Below are positions 7,269-57,592 of a DNA stretch of 64,000 nucleotides, piece after piece. Position numbers and translations under genes: made by a program. This stretch comes from Xenorhabdus cabanillasii (GTDB lineage Bacteria; Pseudomonadota; Gammaproteobacteria; Enterobacterales; Enterobacteriaceae): NCBI RefSeq assembly GCF_003386665.1, contig NZ_QTUB01000001.1, forward strand, positions 4,030,001-4,094,000, read 5' to 3'. The number at the start of each line of letters is the position of its first letter. The stretch's first letter is position 1. Under the pieces are notes generated by a model. It worked only from the letters and a program-made list of their open reading frames with translations. It did not search any database and was not told where the DNA came from.

Positions 7269-8588
<1,320 letters not shown>

Positions 8589-8720
8589 CTAGTTGTTGAG
8601 AAAATAATTGTTAAGAAAATAGTATTGAGAAAAAAGTTACTAAAACAGTAGCAAAATCAGTTTTGATTAACCAACCTGATATAAATTCTTTGCCATATCA
8701 ACCTTACCGTATCAATGATA

Positions 8721-10064
8721 TTAACGATAGCGTTTTATTGAACTACTTTGGTCTTGTTCCATCAACCAGTTTAATTTTTCACCAATCTTACCTTCCAGCC
8801 CTCTGTTAGTCGGGTGGTAATAACGAGTACGTTGCATCTCAGGTGGAAAATAAACTTCTCCCGCCGCATACGCATTGGGCTCATCATGAGCATAACGGTA
8901 TCCTTCACCAAAACCCATTTCGTTCATCAATTTGGTTGGAGCATTACGCAGATGCGCAGGAACGTCGTAATCCGGCTTTTCTTGTGCATCTGCCATCGCT
9001 GCTTTAAATGCCGTGTAAACAGCATTACTTTTGGGAGCACAGGCAAGATAAACAATTGCCTGAGCAATTGCCCGTTCTCCCTCTGCTGCTCCAACACGGG
9101 TAAAACAATCCCATGCAGCAATTGCTATCTGCATTCCACGCGGATCAGCATTACCTACATCTTCAGACGCTATCGCCAATAAGCGGCGGGCAACATAAAG
9201 CGGATCTCCACCCGCGGTAATAATTCTGGCATACCAGTAAAGTGCGGCATCCGGTGAAGAACCACGGATCGATTTATGCAAAGCCGATATTAAGTCGTAA
9301 TATCGATCACCTTGATTATCAAACCGCGCACTCCGCTCCCCGCTAACCTCTTTCAGTAACTCTGGAGTCAGGATACGTTGCCCTTGTACATTGACTTCCG
9401 CCATATCCGACATCATTTCCAGCAAGTTCAATGAACGACGTGCATCCCCTGCGACCAACTCTGCTACCATCTGGCGAGTGCTGTCCGGCAACACGATATT
9501 TTGCCCACCAAGTCCATGCTCTTTATCATTTATGGCCTGAATAAGCACTTGTTCTATTTCTGCTGGCGAAAGAGATTTCAATAAATAGACTCGCGCCCGT
9601 GATAACAGTGCTGAATTTAGTTCAAAAGAGGGGTTTTCAGTCGTGGCACCAATGAATGTGATGGTGCCATCTTCAATATGCGGCAAAAAGGCATCTTGCT
9701 GGCTTTTGTTAAATCGGTGAACTTCATCGACAAACAAAATTGTTCTACGCCCAGCATTGCGATTCTGCCGCGCTTTTTCTATAGATTCACGTATCTCTTT
9801 GATACCGGATGTAACGGCAGAAATGCGTTCAATATCTGCTTGCGCATGATAGCCGATAATTTCAGCCAGCGTCGTTTTCCCCGTGCCCGGCGGCCCCCAC
9901 AAAATCATGGAATGAAGACGACCTGTACGGATCGCCCTTGGCAAAGGTTTCCCCTCTGCCAATAGATGTTGCTGTCCAATATAACGATCCAGCGTAACTG
10001 GCCGCATTTTTGCAGCCAGTGGCTGAAACTCATTCTGTGAAAAATCGAGTAAAAGATTGTTCAC
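8721..10064 (-). CDS. rarA: Replication-associated recombination protein A (RarA/MgsA)
   Basis: An AAA+ ATPase of the clamp-loader/RarA-WRNIP1 group acting at stalled replication forks. It has 447 residues, the same as in E. coli. The Walker A motif GPPGTGKT is at residues 57-64, Walker B in [10 protein letters not shown] near 110, sensor 1 in [11 protein letters not shown], followed by the C-terminal tetramerisation region ending in a [11 protein letters not shown] tail. It lies 7 bp downstream of lolA and 162 bp upstream of serS, the conserved lolA-rarA-serS order. The short spacer to lolA indicates one transcript. Confidence 0.97.
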
Positions 10065-51139: not shown

Positions 51140-51169
51140 TTCACTCAGTGATACACATCATTTACTGAC

Positions 51170-51195
51170 AAAAACCGACACTATGTCGGTTTTTT
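51170..51195 (+). terminator. Rho-independent terminator of yegH
   Basis: AAAAACCGACA pairs perfectly with TGTCGGTTTTT across a CTA loop, followed by more T, 30 bp after the yegH stop. Confidence 0.93.
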
Positions 51196-51287
51196 CATTT
51201 CTGACAAATTTCATTATTTTGATTTAATTTGAATTTCCAGATAATTAATCCGCTTAATCTTGCAGATGCAATGTATGTCTCATATAG

Positions 51288-51455
51288 GCAGAACCTGCCT
51301 ACATTTCTCCACGAACACATGTTTACCAAAACAATGAGCTTATTAAACAGTCAGTTGTTATAGCTCAGGCAAATGCTACATGGACTTGTGTTGTAACAGG
51401 CGGGTTTGTGAATTACTCCATTAACTTGTCATTGATAAATAAGGGGATTACATGA
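51288..51455 (+). pseudogene. Possible 3' remnant of a phage tail gene, coupled to the fibre gene
   Basis: A frame open from 51288 (after TAG 51285-51287) to TGA 51453-51455, whose stop overlaps the ATG of the tail-fibre gene as ATGA. It would encode 55 residues, including VVIAQANATWTCVVTGGFVN near the end, but has no ATG, GTG or usable TTG start. The ATGA coupling is typical of co-translated neighbours, which suggests this is the end of an upstream gene whose beginning was lost. I do not recognise the family. Confidence 0.4.
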
Positions 51456-54400
51456 GTACGAAATATTTTTCATTGTTGACAGATTCAGGTGCCAATAAGC
51501 TGGAAAACGCTGCAACCTCAGGTAGCAAGCTTGAAATTACACATATGGCAGTCGGCGACGGAAATTTATCAACACCTAATGCTAATCAAACTCAATTGAT
51601 TAATGAAAGACATCGCGCAGAAATTGACAGATTATTCATTGATCCTAAAAACCCTAACCAAGTTATTGTTGAACAGGTACTTCCAGAAGATGAGGGTAGC
51701 TGGTGGATCCGTGAAATAGGCCTGTTTGATAAAGATGGTACGCTAGTTGCTGTCGGAAACTGTGCTGAACTGTACAAGTCACAGATGCATGAACAAACAA
51801 TTCGTATGCTTCTACCTATTGATAACATAAATTTGATAGGTTCATTTGATGAATTATTTTCTGGCTTAGCAACTCGCAGATACGTAAGGGACAGAATCAG
51901 AAACCATGCAGAAAGCCGTAACCATCCAGATGCCACGCTGAAAAACAAAGGATTTGTTATCTTAAGTAATGCTGTAGACAGTAACAGTGAAGCTCATGCA
52001 GCAACATCAAAAGCCGTGAAATCAGCTAATGAGTTAGCCCAAAAAGCCTATGATTTAGCTAATCCAGAAAATGCCAAGAAGAAATGGGTGCCGTTAACTC
52101 GCCGTGTCAACGATAAAGAGCTAGTCAATGATATTACCCTGGTGGCGGCCGATGTCGGCGCCTATACCAAAGAAGAAACTAATACGCTGATCAAAGACAG
52201 CGATGCGCAGGTCATGAAAGTGACGGAAAGCAAGGTGCCGTTAACCCGCCGTGTCAATGACAAAGAGCTGGTCAATGACATTACCCTGACCGCCGCCGAT
52301 GTCGGCGCCTACAGCAAGGAAGAAACTAATACGCTGATTAAAGACAGCGATGCACCGATCATGCAGGAAGCCCAGAAGGCTTTACATGAAGCCCATCGGG
52401 CTTTGAAAGATGCGGACAGCAAAGTGCCGTTAACCCGCCGTGTCAACGATAAAGAGCTGGTCAATGACATTACCCTGACTGCCGCCGATGTCGGCGCCTA
52501 TACCAAAGAAGAAACTAATACGCTGATCAAAGACAGTGATGCGCAGGTCATAAAAGTGGCGGACAGCAAGGTGCCGTTAACCCGCCGTGTCAATGACAAA
52601 GAGCTGGTCAATGACATTACTCTGACCGCCGCCGATGTCGGCGCCTACAGCAAGGAAGAAACTAATACGCTGATTAAAGACAGCGATGCACCGATCATGC
52701 AGGAAGCCCAGAAGGCTTTACATGAAGCCCATCGGGCTTTGAAAGATGCGGACAGCAAAGTGCCGTTAACCCGCCGTGTCAATGATAAAGAGCTGGTCAA
52801 TGACATCACCCTGGTAGCGGCCGATGTCGGCGCCTATACCAAAGAAGAAACTAATACGCTGATCAAAGACAGCGATGCACCGATCATGCAGGAAGCCCAA
52901 CAGGCCCTGAAAGCCGCGGAAAGCAAAGTGCCGTTAACCCGCCGTGTCAATGATAAAGAGCTAGTCAATGATATTACCCTGGTGGCGGCCGATGTCGGCG
53001 CCTATACCAAAGAAGAAACTAATACGCTGATTAAAGACAGCGATGCGCAGGTCATAAAAGTGGCGGACAGCAAAGTGCCGTTAACCCGCCGTGTCAATGA
53101 CAAAGAGCTGGTCAATGACATCACCCTGACCGCCGCTGATGTCGGCGCCTACAGCAAGGAAGAAACTAATACGCTGATCAAAGACAGCGATGCACCGATC
53201 ATGCAGGAAGCCCAGAAGGCTTTACATGAAGCCCATCGGGCTCTGAAAGATGCGGAAAGCAAGGTGCCGTTAACCCGCCGTGTCAATGATAAAGAGCTGG
53301 TCAATGACATCACCCTGACCGCCGCTGATGTCGGCGCCTATAACAAGGAAGAAACTAATACGCTGATTAAAGACAGCGATGCACCGATCATGCAGGAAGC
53401 CCAGCGGGCCCTGAATGAAGCTCAACAGGCCGTGAAGACAGCGGACAGCAAAGTGCCGTTAACCCGCCGTGTCAATGATAAAGAGCTGGTCAATGACATT
53501 ACCCTGACCGCCGCCGATGTCGGCGCCTATACCAAGGACGAAACCGATACGCAGGTCATGAAAGTGGCGGACAGCAAGGTGCCGTTAACCCGCCGTGTCA
53601 ATGATAAAGAGCTGGTCAATGACATTACCCTGGTAGCGGCCGATGTCGGCGCCTATACCAAGGAAGAAACCGATGCGCGGATCAAAGACGGTGATACGCA
53701 GGTCATGAAAGTGGCAGACAGCAAGGTGCCGTTAACCCGCCGTATCAATGATAAAGAGCTGGTCAATGACATCACCCTGGCAGCGGCCGATGTCGGCGCC
53801 TATACCAAGGACGAAACCGATACGCGGATCAAAGACAGTGGTACACCGATCATGCAGGAAGCCCAACAGGCCCTGAAAGCCGCGGAAAGCAAAGTGCCGT
53901 TAACCCGCCGTGTCAATGATAAAGAGCTGGTCAATGACATCACCCTGGTGGCGGCCGATGTCGGCGCCTATACCAAGGACGAAACCAATACGCGGATCAA
54001 AGACAGTGGTACACCGATCATGCAGGAAGCCCAACAGGCCCTGAAAGCCGCGGAAAGCAAAGTGCCGTTAACCCGCCGTGTCAATGACAAAGAGCTGGTC
54101 AATGACATTACCCTGACTGCCGCCGATGTCGGCGCCTATACCAAGGAAGAAACCGATACGCGGATCAAAGACGGTGATGCGCAGGTCATGAAAGTGACGG
54201 AAAGCAAGGTGCCGTTAACCCGCCGTATCAATGACAAAGAGCTGGTCAATGACATCACCCTGGCAGCGGCCGATGTCGGCGCCTATACCAAGGACGAAAC
54301 CGATACGCAGGTCATGAAAGTAGCGGACAGCAAGGTGCCGTTAACCCGCCGTATCAATGATAAAGAGCTGGTCAATGACATCACCCTGACCGCCGCCGAT

Positions 54401-57400
54401 GTCGGCGCCTATACCAGGGACGAAACCGATGCACGGATCAAAGACAGCGGTGCACCGATCATGCAGGAAGCCCAACAGGCCCTGAAAGCCGCGGAAAGCA
54501 AGGTGCCGTTAACCCGCCGTGTCAATGACAAAGAGCTGGTCAATGACATTACCCTGGCAGCGGCCGATGTCGGTGCCTATACCAAGGACGAAACCGATGC
54601 GCAGATCATGAAAGTGGCGGACAGCAAAGTGCCGTTAACCCGCCGTGTCAACGACAAAGAGCTGGTCAATGACATCACCCTGGTGGCGGCCGATGTCGGC
54701 GCCTATACCAGGGACGAAACCGATGCACGGATCAAAGACAGCGGTGCACCGATCATGCAGGAAGCCCAACAGGCCCTGAAAGCCGCGGAAAGCAAAGTGC
54801 CGTTAACCCGCCGTGTCAATGACAAAGAGCTGGTCAATGACATTACCCTGGCAGCGGCCGATGTCGGCGCCTATACCAAGGACGAAACCGATACGCGGAT
54901 CAAAGACAGTGGTACACCGATCATGCAGGAAGCCCAACAGGCCCTGAAAGCCGCGGAAAGCAAGGTGCCGTTAACCCGCCGTGTCAATGACAAAGAGCTG
55001 GTCAATGACATTACCCTGGCAGCGGCCGATGTCGGCGCCTATACCAAGGACGAAACCGATACACGGATCAAAGACAGCGGTGCACCGATCATGCAGGAAG
55101 CCCAGAAGGCTTTACATGAAGCTCATCGGGCCCTGAAAGATGCGGAAAGCAAAGTGCCGTTAACCCGCCGTATCAATGACAAAGAGCTGGTCAATGACAT
55201 TACCCTGGTGGCGGCCGATGTCGGGGCTTATACCAAGGACGAAACCGATGCACGGATCAAAGACGGTGATGAGCAGGTCATGAAAGTGGCGGAAAACAAA
55301 GTGCCGTTAACCCGCCGTGTCAATGATAAAGAGCTGGTCAATGATATTACCCTGGTAGCGGCCGATGTCGGCGCCTATACCAGGGACGAAACCGATACGC
55401 GGATCAAAGACAGCGGTGCACCGATCATGCAGGAAGCCCAACAGGCCCTGAAAGCCGCGGAAAGCAAGGTGCCGTTAACCCGCCGTGTCAATGACAAAGA
55501 GCTGGTCAATGACATCACCCTGGTGGCGGCCGATGTCGGCGCCTATACCAAGGACGAAACCGATGCGCAGATCATGAAAGTGGCGGACAGCAAGGTGCCG
55601 TTAACCCGCCGTGTCAATGACAAAGAGCTGGTCAATGACATCACCCTGGTAGCGGCCGATGTCGGCGCCTATACCAGGGACGAAACCGATACACGGATCA
55701 AAGACAGCGGTGCACCGATCATGCAGGAAGCCCAGAAGGCTTTACATGAAGCCCATCGGGCCCTGAAAGCCGCGGAAAGCAAGGTGCCGTTAACCCGCCG
55801 TGTCAACGATAAAGAGCTGGTCAATGACATTACCCTGGTGGCGGCCGATGTCGGCGCCTATACCAAGGAAGAAACCGATGCGCGGATCAAAGACGGTGAT
55901 GCGCAGGTCATAAAAGTGGCGGACAGCAAGGTGCCGTTAACCCGCCGTGTCAACGATAAAGAGCTGGTCAATGACATTACCCTGGTGGCGGCCGATGTCG
56001 GCGCCTATACCAAGGAAGAAACCGATGCGCGGATCAAAGACGGTGATGCGCAGGTCATGAAAGTGGCGGACAGCAAGGTGCCGTTAACCCGCCGTGTCAA
56101 CGACAAAGAGCTGGTCAATGACATTACCCTGATAGCGGCCGATGTCGGGGCCTACAGCAAGGAAGAAACTAATACGCTGATCAAAGACAGCGATGCACCG
56201 ATCATGCAGGAAGCCGAGCGGGCCCTGAAAGCCGCGGAAAGCAAAGTGCCGTTAACCCGCCGTGTCAATGATAAAGAGCTGGTCAATGACATTACCCTGG
56301 TGGCGGCCGATGTCGGGGCTTATACCAAGGAAGAAACCGATGCGCGGATCAAAGACGGTGATGCGCAGGTCATGAAAGTGGCGGACAGCAAGGTGCCGTT
56401 AACCCGCCGTGTCAACGACAAAGAGCTGGTCAATGACATTACCCTGACCGCCGCCGATGTCGGGGCTTATACCAAGGAAGAAACCGATACGCGGATCAAA
56501 GACGGTGATGCGCAGGTCATGAAAGTGGCGGACAGCAAGGTGCCGTTAACCCGCCGCATCAACGACAAAGAACTGATCAATGACATTAAACTGGCGGCGG
56601 CCGATGTCGGGGCTTATACCAAGGAAGAAACCGATGCGCGGATCAAAGACGGTGATGCACAAGTCATGAAAGTGGCGGACAGCAAGGTGCCGTTAACCCG
56701 CCGTATCAACAACAAAGAGCTGGTGAATGACATTAAACTGGTGGCGGCTGATGTCGATGCCTACAATAAAGAAGAAACCAGCCAGCTTATTGATAATATT
56801 CATGAGCTAGTAAACTCTGCCAATAACAATGCTGATAGCAAAGTGCCAATGACTCGTACAGTGAATAATAAAGCGCTGTTAACAGACATTACACTTACTG
56901 CATCTGATATAGATACCTATACTAGAGGAGAAATTGATCAACAAATCCATACAGTCAGGAAGTTAGCAAATGATGCCAATAATAATGTAAACGGCAAAGT
57001 TCCATTAACTCGTACAGTAAATAGTAAAGCACTGTTAGCAGATATTGTACTTACTGCATACGATGTCGGCGCCTATAGCAAAAACGAAGTAGATTCTCGT
57101 ATAGGGAAAGTTAATGCGAACGCCAATAGTCGGCTGGCAAAAAATGAGAACGGAGCTGATATTCCAGACAAAAATGCTTTTGTAAGAAATCTTGGTTTAG
57201 CTAATCTGGTTGGGTTAAATATTGAATCTCGTTTAATCGGACAAGACGCCACTGTCATCAGACTTGGTGATATCGTCCAGATAAACGGGACCGCCGTAGC
57301 CAGTGACTCAATTCAGGCAGTTAATATGTCAGTTATCGGTGGAATAACCTATTACACCAATTACTACAAAGTACAACTGCCAATCAGCTTGTCAAATGGC

Positions 57401-57592
57401 ATCATTTCATGTCATGCCAGTATTGTCGGAGATAATTTCGATGCACAAAGCCCTGGCTACCCGGCTGATGTTAAAACACAACGCAATAATCCGGATGGAA
57501 TGGGAATATCGAAAGATACCTTAACTATATCGGTCACTACTCCACAATTAGGCTGGATTCCACAATTCTATTATGAGGTTATGGGGTATTAA
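51452..57592 (+). CDS. Giant repetitive phage-type tail-fibre protein
   Basis: A 2046-residue protein. Residues 1 to about 160 match the phage tail-collar fibre domain that attaches fibres to the baseplate (MSTKYFSLLTDSGANKLENA, then a WWIREIGLFDKDGTLVAVGN motif). Residues 213-1745 are 29 tandem repeats of 42, 49, 56 or 63 residues, each with core VPLTRRVNDKELVNDITL plus AADVGAY. Three divergent units follow. The C-terminus (about 1880-2046), beginning KNENGADIPDKNAFVRNLGL, is a probable receptor-binding tip, rich in beta structure. GGGG (AAGGGGATTAC) precedes the ATG. It lies alone between yegH and asmA with no phage structural, lysis or integrase gene and no tail-fibre chaperone next to it. 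It could be a phage or tailocin remnant, or a part exchanged with a tailocin elsewhere. I am sure of the fibre type, not of the function. Confidence 0.9.
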   Translation: MSTKYFSLLTDSGANKLENAATSGSKLEITHMAVGDGNLSTPNANQTQLINERHRAEIDRLFIDPKNPNQVIVEQVLPEDEGSWWIREIGLFDKDGTLVAVGNCAELYKSQMHEQTIRMLLPIDNINLIGSFDELFSGLATRRYVRDRIRNHAESRNHPDATLKNKGFVILSNAVDSNSEAHAATSKAVKSANELAQKAYDLANPENAKKKWVPLTRRVNDKELVNDITLVAADVGAYTKEETNTLIKDSDAQVMKVTESKVPLTRRVNDKELVNDITLTAADVGAYSKEETNTLIKDSDAPIMQEAQKALHEAHRALKDADSKVPLTRRVNDKELVNDITLTAADVGAYTKEETNTLIKDSDAQVIKVADSKVPLTRRVNDKELVNDITLTAADVGAYSKEETNTLIKDSDAPIMQEAQKALHEAHRALKDADSKVPLTRRVNDKELVNDITLVAADVGAYTKEETNTLIKDSDAPIMQEAQQALKAAESKVPLTRRVNDKELVNDITLVAADVGAYTKEETNTLIKDSDAQVIKVADSKVPLTRRVNDKELVNDITLTAADVGAYSKEETNTLIKDSDAPIMQEAQKALHEAHRALKDAESKVPLTRRVNDKELVNDITLTAADVGAYNKEETNTLIKDSDAPIMQEAQRALNEAQQAVKTADSKVPLTRRVNDKELVNDITLTAADVGAYTKDETDTQVMKVADSKVPLTRRVNDKELVNDITLVAADVGAYTKEETDARIKDGDTQVMKVADSKVPLTRRINDKELVNDITLAAADVGAYTKDETDTRIKDSGTPIMQEAQQALKAAESKVPLTRRVNDKELVNDITLVAADVGAYTKDETNTRIKDSGTPIMQEAQQALKAAESKVPLTRRVNDKELVNDITLTAADVGAYTKEETDTRIKDGDAQVMKVTESKVPLTRRINDKELVNDITLAAADVGAYTKDETDTQVMKVADSKVPLTRRINDKELVNDITLTAADVGAYTRDETDARIKDSGAPIMQEAQQALKAAESKVPLTRRVNDKELVNDITLAAADVGAYTKDETDAQIMKVADSKVPLTRRVNDKELVNDITLVAADVGAYTRDETDARIKDSGAPIMQEAQQALKAAESKVPLTRRVNDKELVNDITLAAADVGAYTKDETDTRIKDSGTPIMQEAQQALKAAESKVPLTRRVNDKELVNDITLAAADVGAYTKDETDTRIKDSGAPIMQEAQKALHEAHRALKDAESKVPLTRRINDKELVNDITLVAADVGAYTKDETDARIKDGDEQVMKVAENKVPLTRRVNDKELVNDITLVAADVGAYTRDETDTRIKDSGAPIMQEAQQALKAAESKVPLTRRVNDKELVNDITLVAADVGAYTKDETDAQIMKVADSKVPLTRRVNDKELVNDITLVAADVGAYTRDETDTRIKDSGAPIMQEAQKALHEAHRALKAAESKVPLTRRVNDKELVNDITLVAADVGAYTKEETDARIKDGDAQVIKVADSKVPLTRRVNDKELVNDITLVAADVGAYTKEETDARIKDGDAQVMKVADSKVPLTRRVNDKELVNDITLIAADVGAYSKEETNTLIKDSDAPIMQEAERALKAAESKVPLTRRVNDKELVNDITLVAADVGAYTKEETDARIKDGDAQVMKVADSKVPLTRRVNDKELVNDITLTAADVGAYTKEETDTRIKDGDAQVMKVADSKVPLTRRINDKELINDIKLAAADVGAYTKEETDARIKDGDAQVMKVADSKVPLTRRINNKELVNDIKLVAADVDAYNKEETSQLIDNIHELVNSANNNADSKVPMTRTVNNKALLTDITLTASDIDTYTRGEIDQQIHTVRKLANDANNNVNGKVPLTRTVNSKALLADIVLTAYDVGAYSKNEVDSRIGKVNANANSRLAKNENGADIPDKNAFVRNLGLANLVGLNIESRLIGQDATVIRLGDIVQINGTAVASDSIQAVNMSVIGGITYYTNYYKVQLPISLSNGIISCHASIVGDNFDAQSPGYPADVKTQRNNPDGMGISKDTLTISVTTPQLGWIPQFYYEVMGY
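52088..56686 (+). repeat. 29-unit heptad-multiple tandem array inside the tail-fibre gene
   Basis: Units begin at VPLTRR (first codon at 52088; next units at 52235, 52424, 52571 and so on). All 29 have a 26-residue core plus a linker of 16, 23, 30 or 37 residues. The counts are 4 units of 42 residues, 11 of 49, 8 of 56 and 6 of 63, totalling 1533 residues, and the summed lengths land exactly on the unit-30 start at 56687. Linkers are Ala/Glu/Lys-rich and helical in type. Units differ by few bases, and the array is visibly more GC-rich than the flanking gene ends. Two 52-residue diverged units (56687-56998) and a terminal one follow. Confidence 0.95.

What the first reader, a model, noticed from the sequence alone, without database searches (positions are those of the whole stretch)
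52088..56686. Tail-fibre repeat units occur only in whole-heptad lengths (42, 49, 56, 63 residues)
I split residues 213-1745 at each VPLTRR. All 29 units have a constant 26-residue core, and linkers of exactly 16, 23, 30 or 37 residues (16 + 7n). The summed unit lengths give 4599 bp and land exactly on the start of unit 30 at 56687, so the count is internally checked. Extra segments such as QALKAAE are helical heptads. Phage fibre stalks commonly alternate beta cores with trimeric coiled coils. Insertions of exactly 7 residues would lengthen a coil without changing its register. This suggests a modular length-variable stalk in which selection permits only 21-bp steps.
Basis: partly seen in the sequence, partly recalled or inferred. 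Interest (0 to 1): 0.8.

Follow-up and report, generated by a model that had tools for sequence, protein, structure and literature searches.

The report
Lone tail fibre built in heptad steps
A very long phage-type tail-fibre gene, sitting alone at one chromosomal site in most of the Xenorhabdus genomes examined, changes its stalk length almost only in steps of seven residues, most likely because its linkers are helical coils whose register must be kept.

Summary
In detail: 29 consecutive units at 52088-56686 are 42, 49, 56 or 63 residues long. The next two are 52, so "16 + 7n" fails for the whole array. Orthologues correct and widen the rule: in 23 Xenorhabdus genomes 327 of 328 units are 0 or 3 modulo 7, and the exception spans a run of N. 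The two classes differ by a register shift that leaves the linker's first isoleucine on a hydrophobic heptad position, a or d (inferred). Linkers are modelled as helices at low confidence; trimerisation was not tested. Elsewhere in the gene, lengths differ by 1-4 residues. DNA microhomology favours 21-bp steps but does not suffice.

The gene is an orphan: it lies at one chromosomal site in 23 of 30 genomes, is a remnant in one and absent in six. It is old, distinct from the tailocin fibre and under purifying selection. Its full-length tip occurs only there in the genus. Most likely role: an alternative tailocin fibre; this is inferred.

The parts
51452..57592 (+). orphan long tail-fibre gene, 2046 aa
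51452..51820 (+). N-terminal tail-collar fibre domain (PF12571), the baseplate-attachment type; residues 1-123
   Evidence: E 3.7e-40, 137.8 bits against cut-off 23
51935..52057 (+). phage tail fibre repeat PF03406 (Phage_fiber_2); residues 162-202
   Evidence: E 2.3e-14
52088..56686 (+). 29 stalk units, each a 26-residue core plus a 16/23/30/37-residue linker (class 0 mod 7)
56687..56998 (+). units 30-31, 52 residues each (linker 26, class 3 mod 7), the class that prevails in the genus
56999..57118 (+). last core and short helix joining the tip; 17 of the 21 aligned orthologues carry exactly 7 or 14 more residues in this helix, 4 have the same length
57119..57589 (+). conserved C-terminal tip, 157 aa, found full length in the genus only at this locus
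51140..51451 (+). 5' region: terminator-like hairpin at 51170-51194, then a leader; no exact CTGT-N8-ACAG (LexA-like) box here

Best explanation
The ORF is a long phage-type tail fibre, homotrimeric by inference. Its stalk alternates a 26-residue core with a helical coiled-coil linker. Length changes by gain or loss of whole core-linker units and by 21-bp steps inside linkers. Only linker lengths that keep the helix in register between two fixed cores persist: 19 + 7n, where the first core isoleucine (linker position 9) is at one heptad core position, and 16 + 7n, where it is at the other after a 3-residue shift, which in the window's linkers would lie at a Gly/Pro-bearing hinge (DGDA, DSGAP). 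The gene stands alone at a fixed chromosomal site in Xenorhabdus, is mainly inherited vertically and is kept by purifying selection. Its N-terminus is of the kind that docks on a P2-like baseplate. The most likely role is therefore an extra, long-reach fibre supplied in trans to the xenorhabdicin tailocin (or a related phage particle), with a fixed tip and an adjustable stalk. Shown: repeat structure, length rule, site, single clade, selection. Inferred: trimer, exact place of the register shift, particle, target.
For: Unit lengths 0 or 3 mod 7 in 327 of 328 units of 23 genomes; the one other (54) spans an N run. Of 56 length-change edges in a spanning tree of 283 unique linkers, 45 are multiples of 7, 10 are 3/4 mod 7 and 1 is the N artefact; of the 29 at 80% identity or more (over the shorter linker, counted by hand from the list), 27 are multiples of 7 and 2 are switches. 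Hydrophobic power at period 3.5 is 39.0 against shuffles 10.2 (sd 0.6) in 237 class 3 linkers, and 30.9 against 10.3 (sd 1.3) in 45 of class 0. Linkers modelled as helices 28-56 and 84-112. The helix before the tip differs by exactly 0, 7 or 14. Non-coil stretches do not follow the rule. Same site in 23 of 30 genomes; 23 orphan N-domains on one side of a branch, SH-aLRT 100; six changes of presence on the species tree, most simply losses; dN/dS 0.05-0.24 for the N-domain and 0.09-0.35 for the tip. Best PDB fold matches of the tip by E-value and probability: R2 and R1 pyocin fibres, probability 1.00, E 2e-3 and 7e-3.
Against: AlphaFold models are weak (best pLDDT 60 for the stalk, the other four models 38-44; 47 for the C-terminal part) and of single chains, so oligomerisation is not shown. 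The highest of 12 tested hydrophobic periods was 3.6 in both classes, which any amphipathic helix would give, and in class 0 the last 12 residues do not show a clean a/d pattern. No Foldseek PDB match reached E 0.001. In the N-domain tree X. khoisanae (G026) does not sit where the species tree puts it, so inheritance is not strictly vertical. No exact LexA-like box lies upstream, unlike the tailocin loci, so co-induction with the tailocin is not supported. Seven of 30 genomes lack an intact gene. No tail-fibre assembly gene lies beside it in the window. Linkers within an array are copies, so independent events are fewer than units.
Confidence: 0.65

Rival explanations
1. Mutation alone: the linkers contain 21-bp direct or tandem repeats, so slippage yields 21-bp steps without any structural selection.
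For: A GATGCGC/GATACGC-type repeat 21 bp apart marks the 42-residue units, and the 63-residue linkers hold an imperfect 21-bp tandem (read by eye). In-frame direct repeats of 6 bp or more at multiples of 21 bp are 82 of 326.
Against: 142 of 326 in-frame repeats would give steps outside the allowed classes and none is seen; P for 29 of 29 events in allowed classes is 6e-8 (k>=6) or 4e-5 (k>=9), treating edges as independent, which they are not strictly. The DNA periodicity may itself be a consequence of the heptads.
Confidence: 0.12
2. Descent alone: a few ancestral linker modules were copied, and their lengths happen to be multiples of 7 apart.
For: Within the window only about four linker types occur. 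Four related genomes share one identical series of 13 lengths.
Against: Twelve linker lengths, one of them the N artefact, among 283 unique linkers, and 27 high-identity edges that are multiples of 7. A separate helix before the tip shows the same step. The N-domain of the same gene shows length differences of 1-4 residues.
Confidence: 0.08
3. The gene is a decaying remnant of an old prophage without a present function.
For: No other phage gene recognised at the site in the window; absent in 6 of 30 genomes and reduced to its two ends in 1.
Against: Open frames of up to 2234 aa; dN/dS well under 1 at both ends, similar to the neighbour asmA; presence on both sides of the deepest split of a midpoint-rooted species tree, and a single clade.
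Confidence: 0.15
4. The gene is a silent cassette that donates stalk or tip segments to the tailocin fibre by recombination.
For: Some tailocin-type fibres also carry the same core, and published work reports shuffling of fibre ends within the tailocin locus (PMC13280938, passages).
Against: For the 1051-base stalk piece searched, all 7 matches in the window's genome lie in this gene itself; the full-length tip is found nowhere else in 30 genomes.
Confidence: 0.07

Closest known systems
XnpH1, main tail fibre of xenorhabdicin (PMC13280938, passages read)
   Same: Same N-terminal tail-collar domain family; 64% identical over the N-domain to the tailocin-type fibre in the same genome (L055; 66%); some carry the VPLTR-type core.
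   Different: Lies in the tailocin locus beside baseplate, spanin and fibre-assembly genes; reported 341-1035 aa with variable C-termini, whereas the orphan is up to 2231 aa with a conserved tip and a variable stalk; on the other side of a branch in the N-domain tree.
R1/R2 pyocin fibres (PMC6116203, passages read; 6ct8, 6cxb, 6cl5)
   Same: Weak fold match of the tip; trimeric receptor-binding fibres of a tailocin.
   Different: The passages describe a rod and shaft of helix-plus-turn motifs with varying linkers, not a long coiled-coil array.
Alpha/beta coiled coils and trimeric autotransporter stalks (PMC4786415, passages read)
   Same: Alternation of helix and beta segments along a trimeric rod; 3- and 4-residue insertions (stammer, stutter) are tolerated discontinuities.
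   Different: No membrane anchor family found here; a 26-residue core rather than a 3-residue beta layer; phage fibre N-domain.
Sensor-kinase linkers varying by seven residues (PMC12582566, one passage)
   Same: Coiled-coil linkers whose length variants tend to behave alike when they differ by multiples of seven.
   Different: Engineered signalling proteins, not a natural stalk.
Gp12 short tail fibre, PDB 9f4b (listing and alignment only)
   Same: One copy of the core, E 4.6e-6; 18 chains in the entry.
   Different: Single copy matched, no array.
Tail fibre protein S of PDB 8ju3 and 5yvq (listing only)
   Same: Best sequence match in the PDB, E 6.6e-9, over residues 1890-1920 at the start of the tip.
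   Different: Only about 30 residues match; the stalk does not.

Membership tests
Phage tail-collar fibre, N-terminal (PF12571) | N-terminal domain above the family cut-off | tested here: met
   residues 1-123, 137.8 bits, cut-off 23
Phage tail fibre repeat (PF03406) | at least one repeat above cut-off | tested here: met
   one stretch, residues 162-202; the 32 VPLTR cores are not called by this model
Heptad coiled coil | helical linkers with seven-residue length steps | tested here: met
   the model is of low confidence
Heptad coiled coil | clean a/d hydrophobic register along the linker | tested here: inconclusive
   clear in pooled class 3 (means 2.66 and 1.01 at two phases, the other five negative); not clean in the last 12 residues of class 0; best period 3.6 in both
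Heptad coiled coil | parallel trimer | not testable with these tools
   only single-chain prediction offered; 9f4b hints at it
Xenorhabdicin main fibre XnpH1 | lies in the xnp1/xbp1 tailocin locus | tested here: not met
   window gene lies alone; the tailocin-type locus is L055
Xenorhabdicin main fibre XnpH1 | groups with other tailocin fibres by N-domain | tested here: not met
   23 orphans on one side of a branch, 54 others on the other
Trimeric autotransporter adhesin | C-terminal membrane anchor domain | tested here: not met
   no anchor family among 5 Pfam hits at E <= 1
Tailocin fibre in function | present in particles and sets killing | not tested
   needs proteomics and killing assays

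The most novel reading that the evidence does not exclude
Xenorhabdus keeps, outside its tailocin locus, a genus-old single-gene 'long-reach' fibre with a fixed tip and an evolvable stalk whose length is tuned in seven-residue and whole-unit steps under a two-phase register rule. It docks in trans on tailocin baseplates and reaches a conserved receptor that the shorter, hypervariable main fibre does not.
Probability: 0.3. Interest if true: 0.7.

Novelty: new variant of a known kind. Interest (0 to 1): 0.55.

Why it matters
It gives a natural, many-fold replicated experiment on which length changes a fibrous coiled-coil stalk tolerates: steps of 7, plus a 3/4-residue phase switch, and nothing else in 327 units. 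It also points to a gene kept by most examined genomes of an insect-killing symbiont that may widen what its tailocins can bind. Both are directly testable by a knock-out, particle proteomics and a structure of a two-unit fragment.

Tried and rejected
Rejected: trimeric autotransporter (no anchor); gene of a prophage still present at the site (in the window the gene fills the gap between its neighbours; likewise in relatives, see report); silent donor cassette.

Led nowhere: Foldseek matches of the tip to polysaccharide lyases have probability about 0.15 and were set aside. Paper searches for 'orphan tail fiber' and variants, unlinked or in-trans tailocin fibres, fibre stalk length variation and Xenorhabdus plus yegH each returned zero papers in the held library. 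The upstream alignment shows a leader conserved in most rows but different in the window's clade; not pursued. Passages of PMC8855722 did not mention this gene.

Errors of mine: the 'fibreC' marker was translated one base out of frame. It served only to mark position; its dN/dS (0.75-1.03, or undefined) is discarded, and the tip was redone in frame. One search stopped on a script error and was rerun with a wider pattern, which matched the control motif in 16 of 23 loci. An earlier count said about 50 kb for the insert in G016; about 55 kb is right.

Dropped before counts: loci L001 and L003-L032 (short duplicates of later loci); non-orphan loci; one unit with N (L050). The 77-91 residue spacings printed from five non-orphan fibres contain an extra module besides the coil and are not used as evidence. 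dN/dS used 11 to 13 close pairs that I chose, not all pairs.

Full report
WHAT WAS CLAIMED AND WHAT IS THERE. ORF 51452-57592 encodes 2046 aa. Units 1-29 begin at 52088 and end at 56686. Their lengths are 49 (11), 56 (8), 63 (6) and 42 (4), 1533 residues in all, and every core is 26 residues. The first 123 residues are a tail-collar fibre N-domain (PF12571, E 3.7e-40), followed by one PF03406 repeat. PHROGs families for tail fibres match along the protein.

RELATIVES. Gene names for the neighbours (gnd, yegH, asmA, dcd, udk, mrp) are my own recognition of the sequences and come from no call. All 30 genus genomes have the yegH and dcd homologues. In 23 (the window's included) a fibre orthologue lies next to yegH (window). 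In six of these (G002, G004, G008, G010, G021, G026) the contig breaks inside the gene and the other half lies beside asmA. Six genomes (G007, G013, G014, G017, G020, G024) have only 122-280 bp between yegH and asmA, and G016 keeps the two ends of the gene with the middle lost. G024 matches a metagenome-assembled record and is 82% complete. In the window the spaces on the two sides of the fibre are 312 and 152 bp. In the relatives with a complete locus they are under 500 bp, except that in two (L052, L054) other ORFs lie between fibre and asmA. I did not scan the relatives' loci for phage genes.

THE LENGTH RULE. With one core profile applied to all orthologues, 328 units were measured in 23 genomes: 271 are 3 mod 7, 56 are 0 mod 7, and 1 is 5 mod 7. 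The last contains a run of N in a draft assembly. Unit lengths seen are 42, 45, 49, 52, 56, 59, 63, 66, 70, 77 and 84. Because units are copies, I joined the 283 unique linkers by a minimum spanning tree. Of 56 edges that change length, 45 are multiples of 7, 10 are 3 or 4 mod 7, and 1 is the N artefact. At 80% identity or more (over the shorter linker), 29 edges remain, 27 multiples of 7 and 2 switches (counted from the list). A separate helix before the tip differs among 22 aligned sequences by exactly 0, 7 or 14 residues. Non-orphan fibres gave 12 further spacings of 52 or 66 in 8 loci, which fit class 3; I did not inspect all their linkers.

WHY THOSE LENGTHS. Pooled over 237 class 3 linkers and counted back from the next core, mean hydrophobicity is 2.66 and 1.01 at two heptad phases and negative at the other five. 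The isoleucine near linker position 9 falls on the first of these phases in class 3 and, counted the same way, on the second in class 0. That is the basis for saying that both classes keep it on a core position. It is an inference: in class 0 the last 12 residues do not repeat the clean pattern (means 2.76, 0.58, 0.18 and -0.44 at phases 0, 4, 5 and 1). I place the shift at DGDA or DSGAP in the window's linkers by eye. The passages of PMC4786415 call insertions of 3 and 4 residues stammer and stutter and say that 1 or 5 are more demanding and 2 or 6 the most straining. Hydrophobic power at period 3.5 is 39.0 against a shuffle mean of 10.2 (sd 0.6) in class 3, and 30.9 against 10.3 (sd 1.3) in 45 linkers of class 0; in both the highest of 12 periods tested is 3.6 (42.2 and 32.0), so the period shows a helix but does not by itself single out heptads. 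AlphaFold draws the two linkers of a test fragment as helices and the cores as mostly extended, at pLDDT 60 in the best model and 38-44 in the other four.

CONTROLS. In the same gene, in the 16 of 23 loci where the motif pattern matched, the distance from the start to a conserved N-domain motif is 150, 151, 153 or 154 residues, and from that motif to the first core 52, 61, 62 or 63. Vibrio jumbo-phage fibres carry the same core with linkers that do not look like heptads: spacings 68 and 72 in pTD1 and VP4B, that is 5 and 2 mod 7. Of the three other phage records read, one gave 68, 38, 68, 68, one 126 and 35 (both 0 mod 7, though the linkers are not coil-like), and one 79 and 251.

MUTATION OR SELECTION. 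The 42-residue units look like 21-bp deletions between short direct repeats, and the 63-residue linkers like 21-bp tandem duplications (by eye). Over 307 linker DNAs, in-frame direct repeats of at least 6 bp number 326; 82 are at multiples of 21 bp, 184 would land in an allowed class and 142 would not. If slippage alone decided, 29 of 29 allowed events would have P about 6e-8 (k>=6) or 4e-5 (k>=9), assuming independence, which recombination between units weakens. Mutation supplies the steps; selection most likely removes the rest.

AGE AND CONSTRAINT. A tree of four neighbouring proteins, rooted at the midpoint, has the fibre on both sides of its deepest split and needs six changes to place the six empty sites (quick method). 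Twenty-three orphan N-domains lie on one side of a branch (SH-aLRT 100), 54 other fibres including the tailocin-type fibre of the same genome on the other. By eye the orphan tree largely follows the species tree; G026 is placed differently. I made no formal test of congruence. dN/dS for close pairs that I chose: N-domain 0.05-0.24 (12 pairs), tip 0.09-0.35 (13 pairs), tailocin-type fibre N-domain 0.02-0.09 (11 pairs), yegH 0.02-0.13 and asmA 0.08-0.21 (12 pairs each). The tip matches full length at 23 places in 30 genomes, all at this site; in the listed rows every other match covers 99 or fewer of 157 residues (the list was cut after the best rows). Its nearest phage relative in the collection is the tail fibre of HK225, 44% over 95%.

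FUNCTION. The second full N-domain in the genome, L055, sits with endolysin, spanin, baseplate and fibre-assembly genes, as expected of the xenorhabdicin locus described in PMC13280938 (passages). Those passages report that deletion and complementation show the main fibre to set killing. The words 'orphan' and 'gnd' do not occur in that paper, and I found no mention of a fibre outside the tailocin locus in the 12 of 24 places shown. The tip's best PDB matches by E-value and probability are R2 and R1 pyocin fibres (probability 1.00, E 2e-3 and 7e-3, TM-score 0.63 by the 122-residue R1 entry); none reaches E 0.001, and lyases of low probability are interleaved. The tip model has pLDDT near 70 in most blocks and 44-59 in one stretch. 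A docking domain for a P2-like baseplate, a tailocin-like tip and long purifying selection point to an extra fibre used in trans. Against it: no exact CTGT-N8-ACAG box upstream (one lies inside the coding region at 51972), whereas L055-L059 each have at least two, and no neighbouring chaperone gene in the window. PMC13280938 suggests that a chaperone may be shared or not needed. The linkers of the 29 units alone hold 779 residues, about 116 nm of helix, so the fibre would be long beside the 24 nm fibre reported for one xenorhabdicin (PMC13280938); this is arithmetic, not measurement.

VERDICT. The principle of seven-residue steps is known for coiled coils (for example sensor kinases, PMC12582566, one passage). 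Its two-phase form in a natural fibre stalk, and the genus-wide orphan fibre, I did not find in print with the searches.

Noticed in passing
L082:3600-4300 (G016): Reduced copy of the orphan fibre: leader, first about 36 codons and an end stretch aligning to the last 47 residues remain, the rest is lost; about 55 kb lies between it and the yegH homologue.
   Followed up: partly
window 51200-51451 and upstream regions of L033-L054: A leader of roughly 100 bp before the start codon is conserved in most species but different in the window's clade (alignment A4).
   Followed up: no
L052:11721-13076, L054:6221-7576: In the genomes matching X. mauleonii and X. szentirmaii a 452-aa ORF that looks like a membrane protein (my recognition, not searched) lies between the fibre and asmA; L054 also has a second fibre-like ORF (7751-8923) without the full N-domain.
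   Followed up: no
L045, L046, L047, L049; L037, L038: Four related genomes keep an identical series of 13 unit lengths, while two X. bovienii-like genomes (L037, L038) have 26 and 12 cores; stalk length is fixed in some lineages and labile in others.
   Followed up: partly
L174, L176 (Vibrio phages pTD1, VP4B): Jumbo-phage tail fibres carry arrays of the same VPLTR-type core with a different, non-heptad linker at 68- or 72-residue spacing.
   Followed up: partly
L055:4279 and 4451: Two LexA-like boxes in the window genome's tailocin-type locus; similar pairs recur in L056-L059.
   Followed up: no
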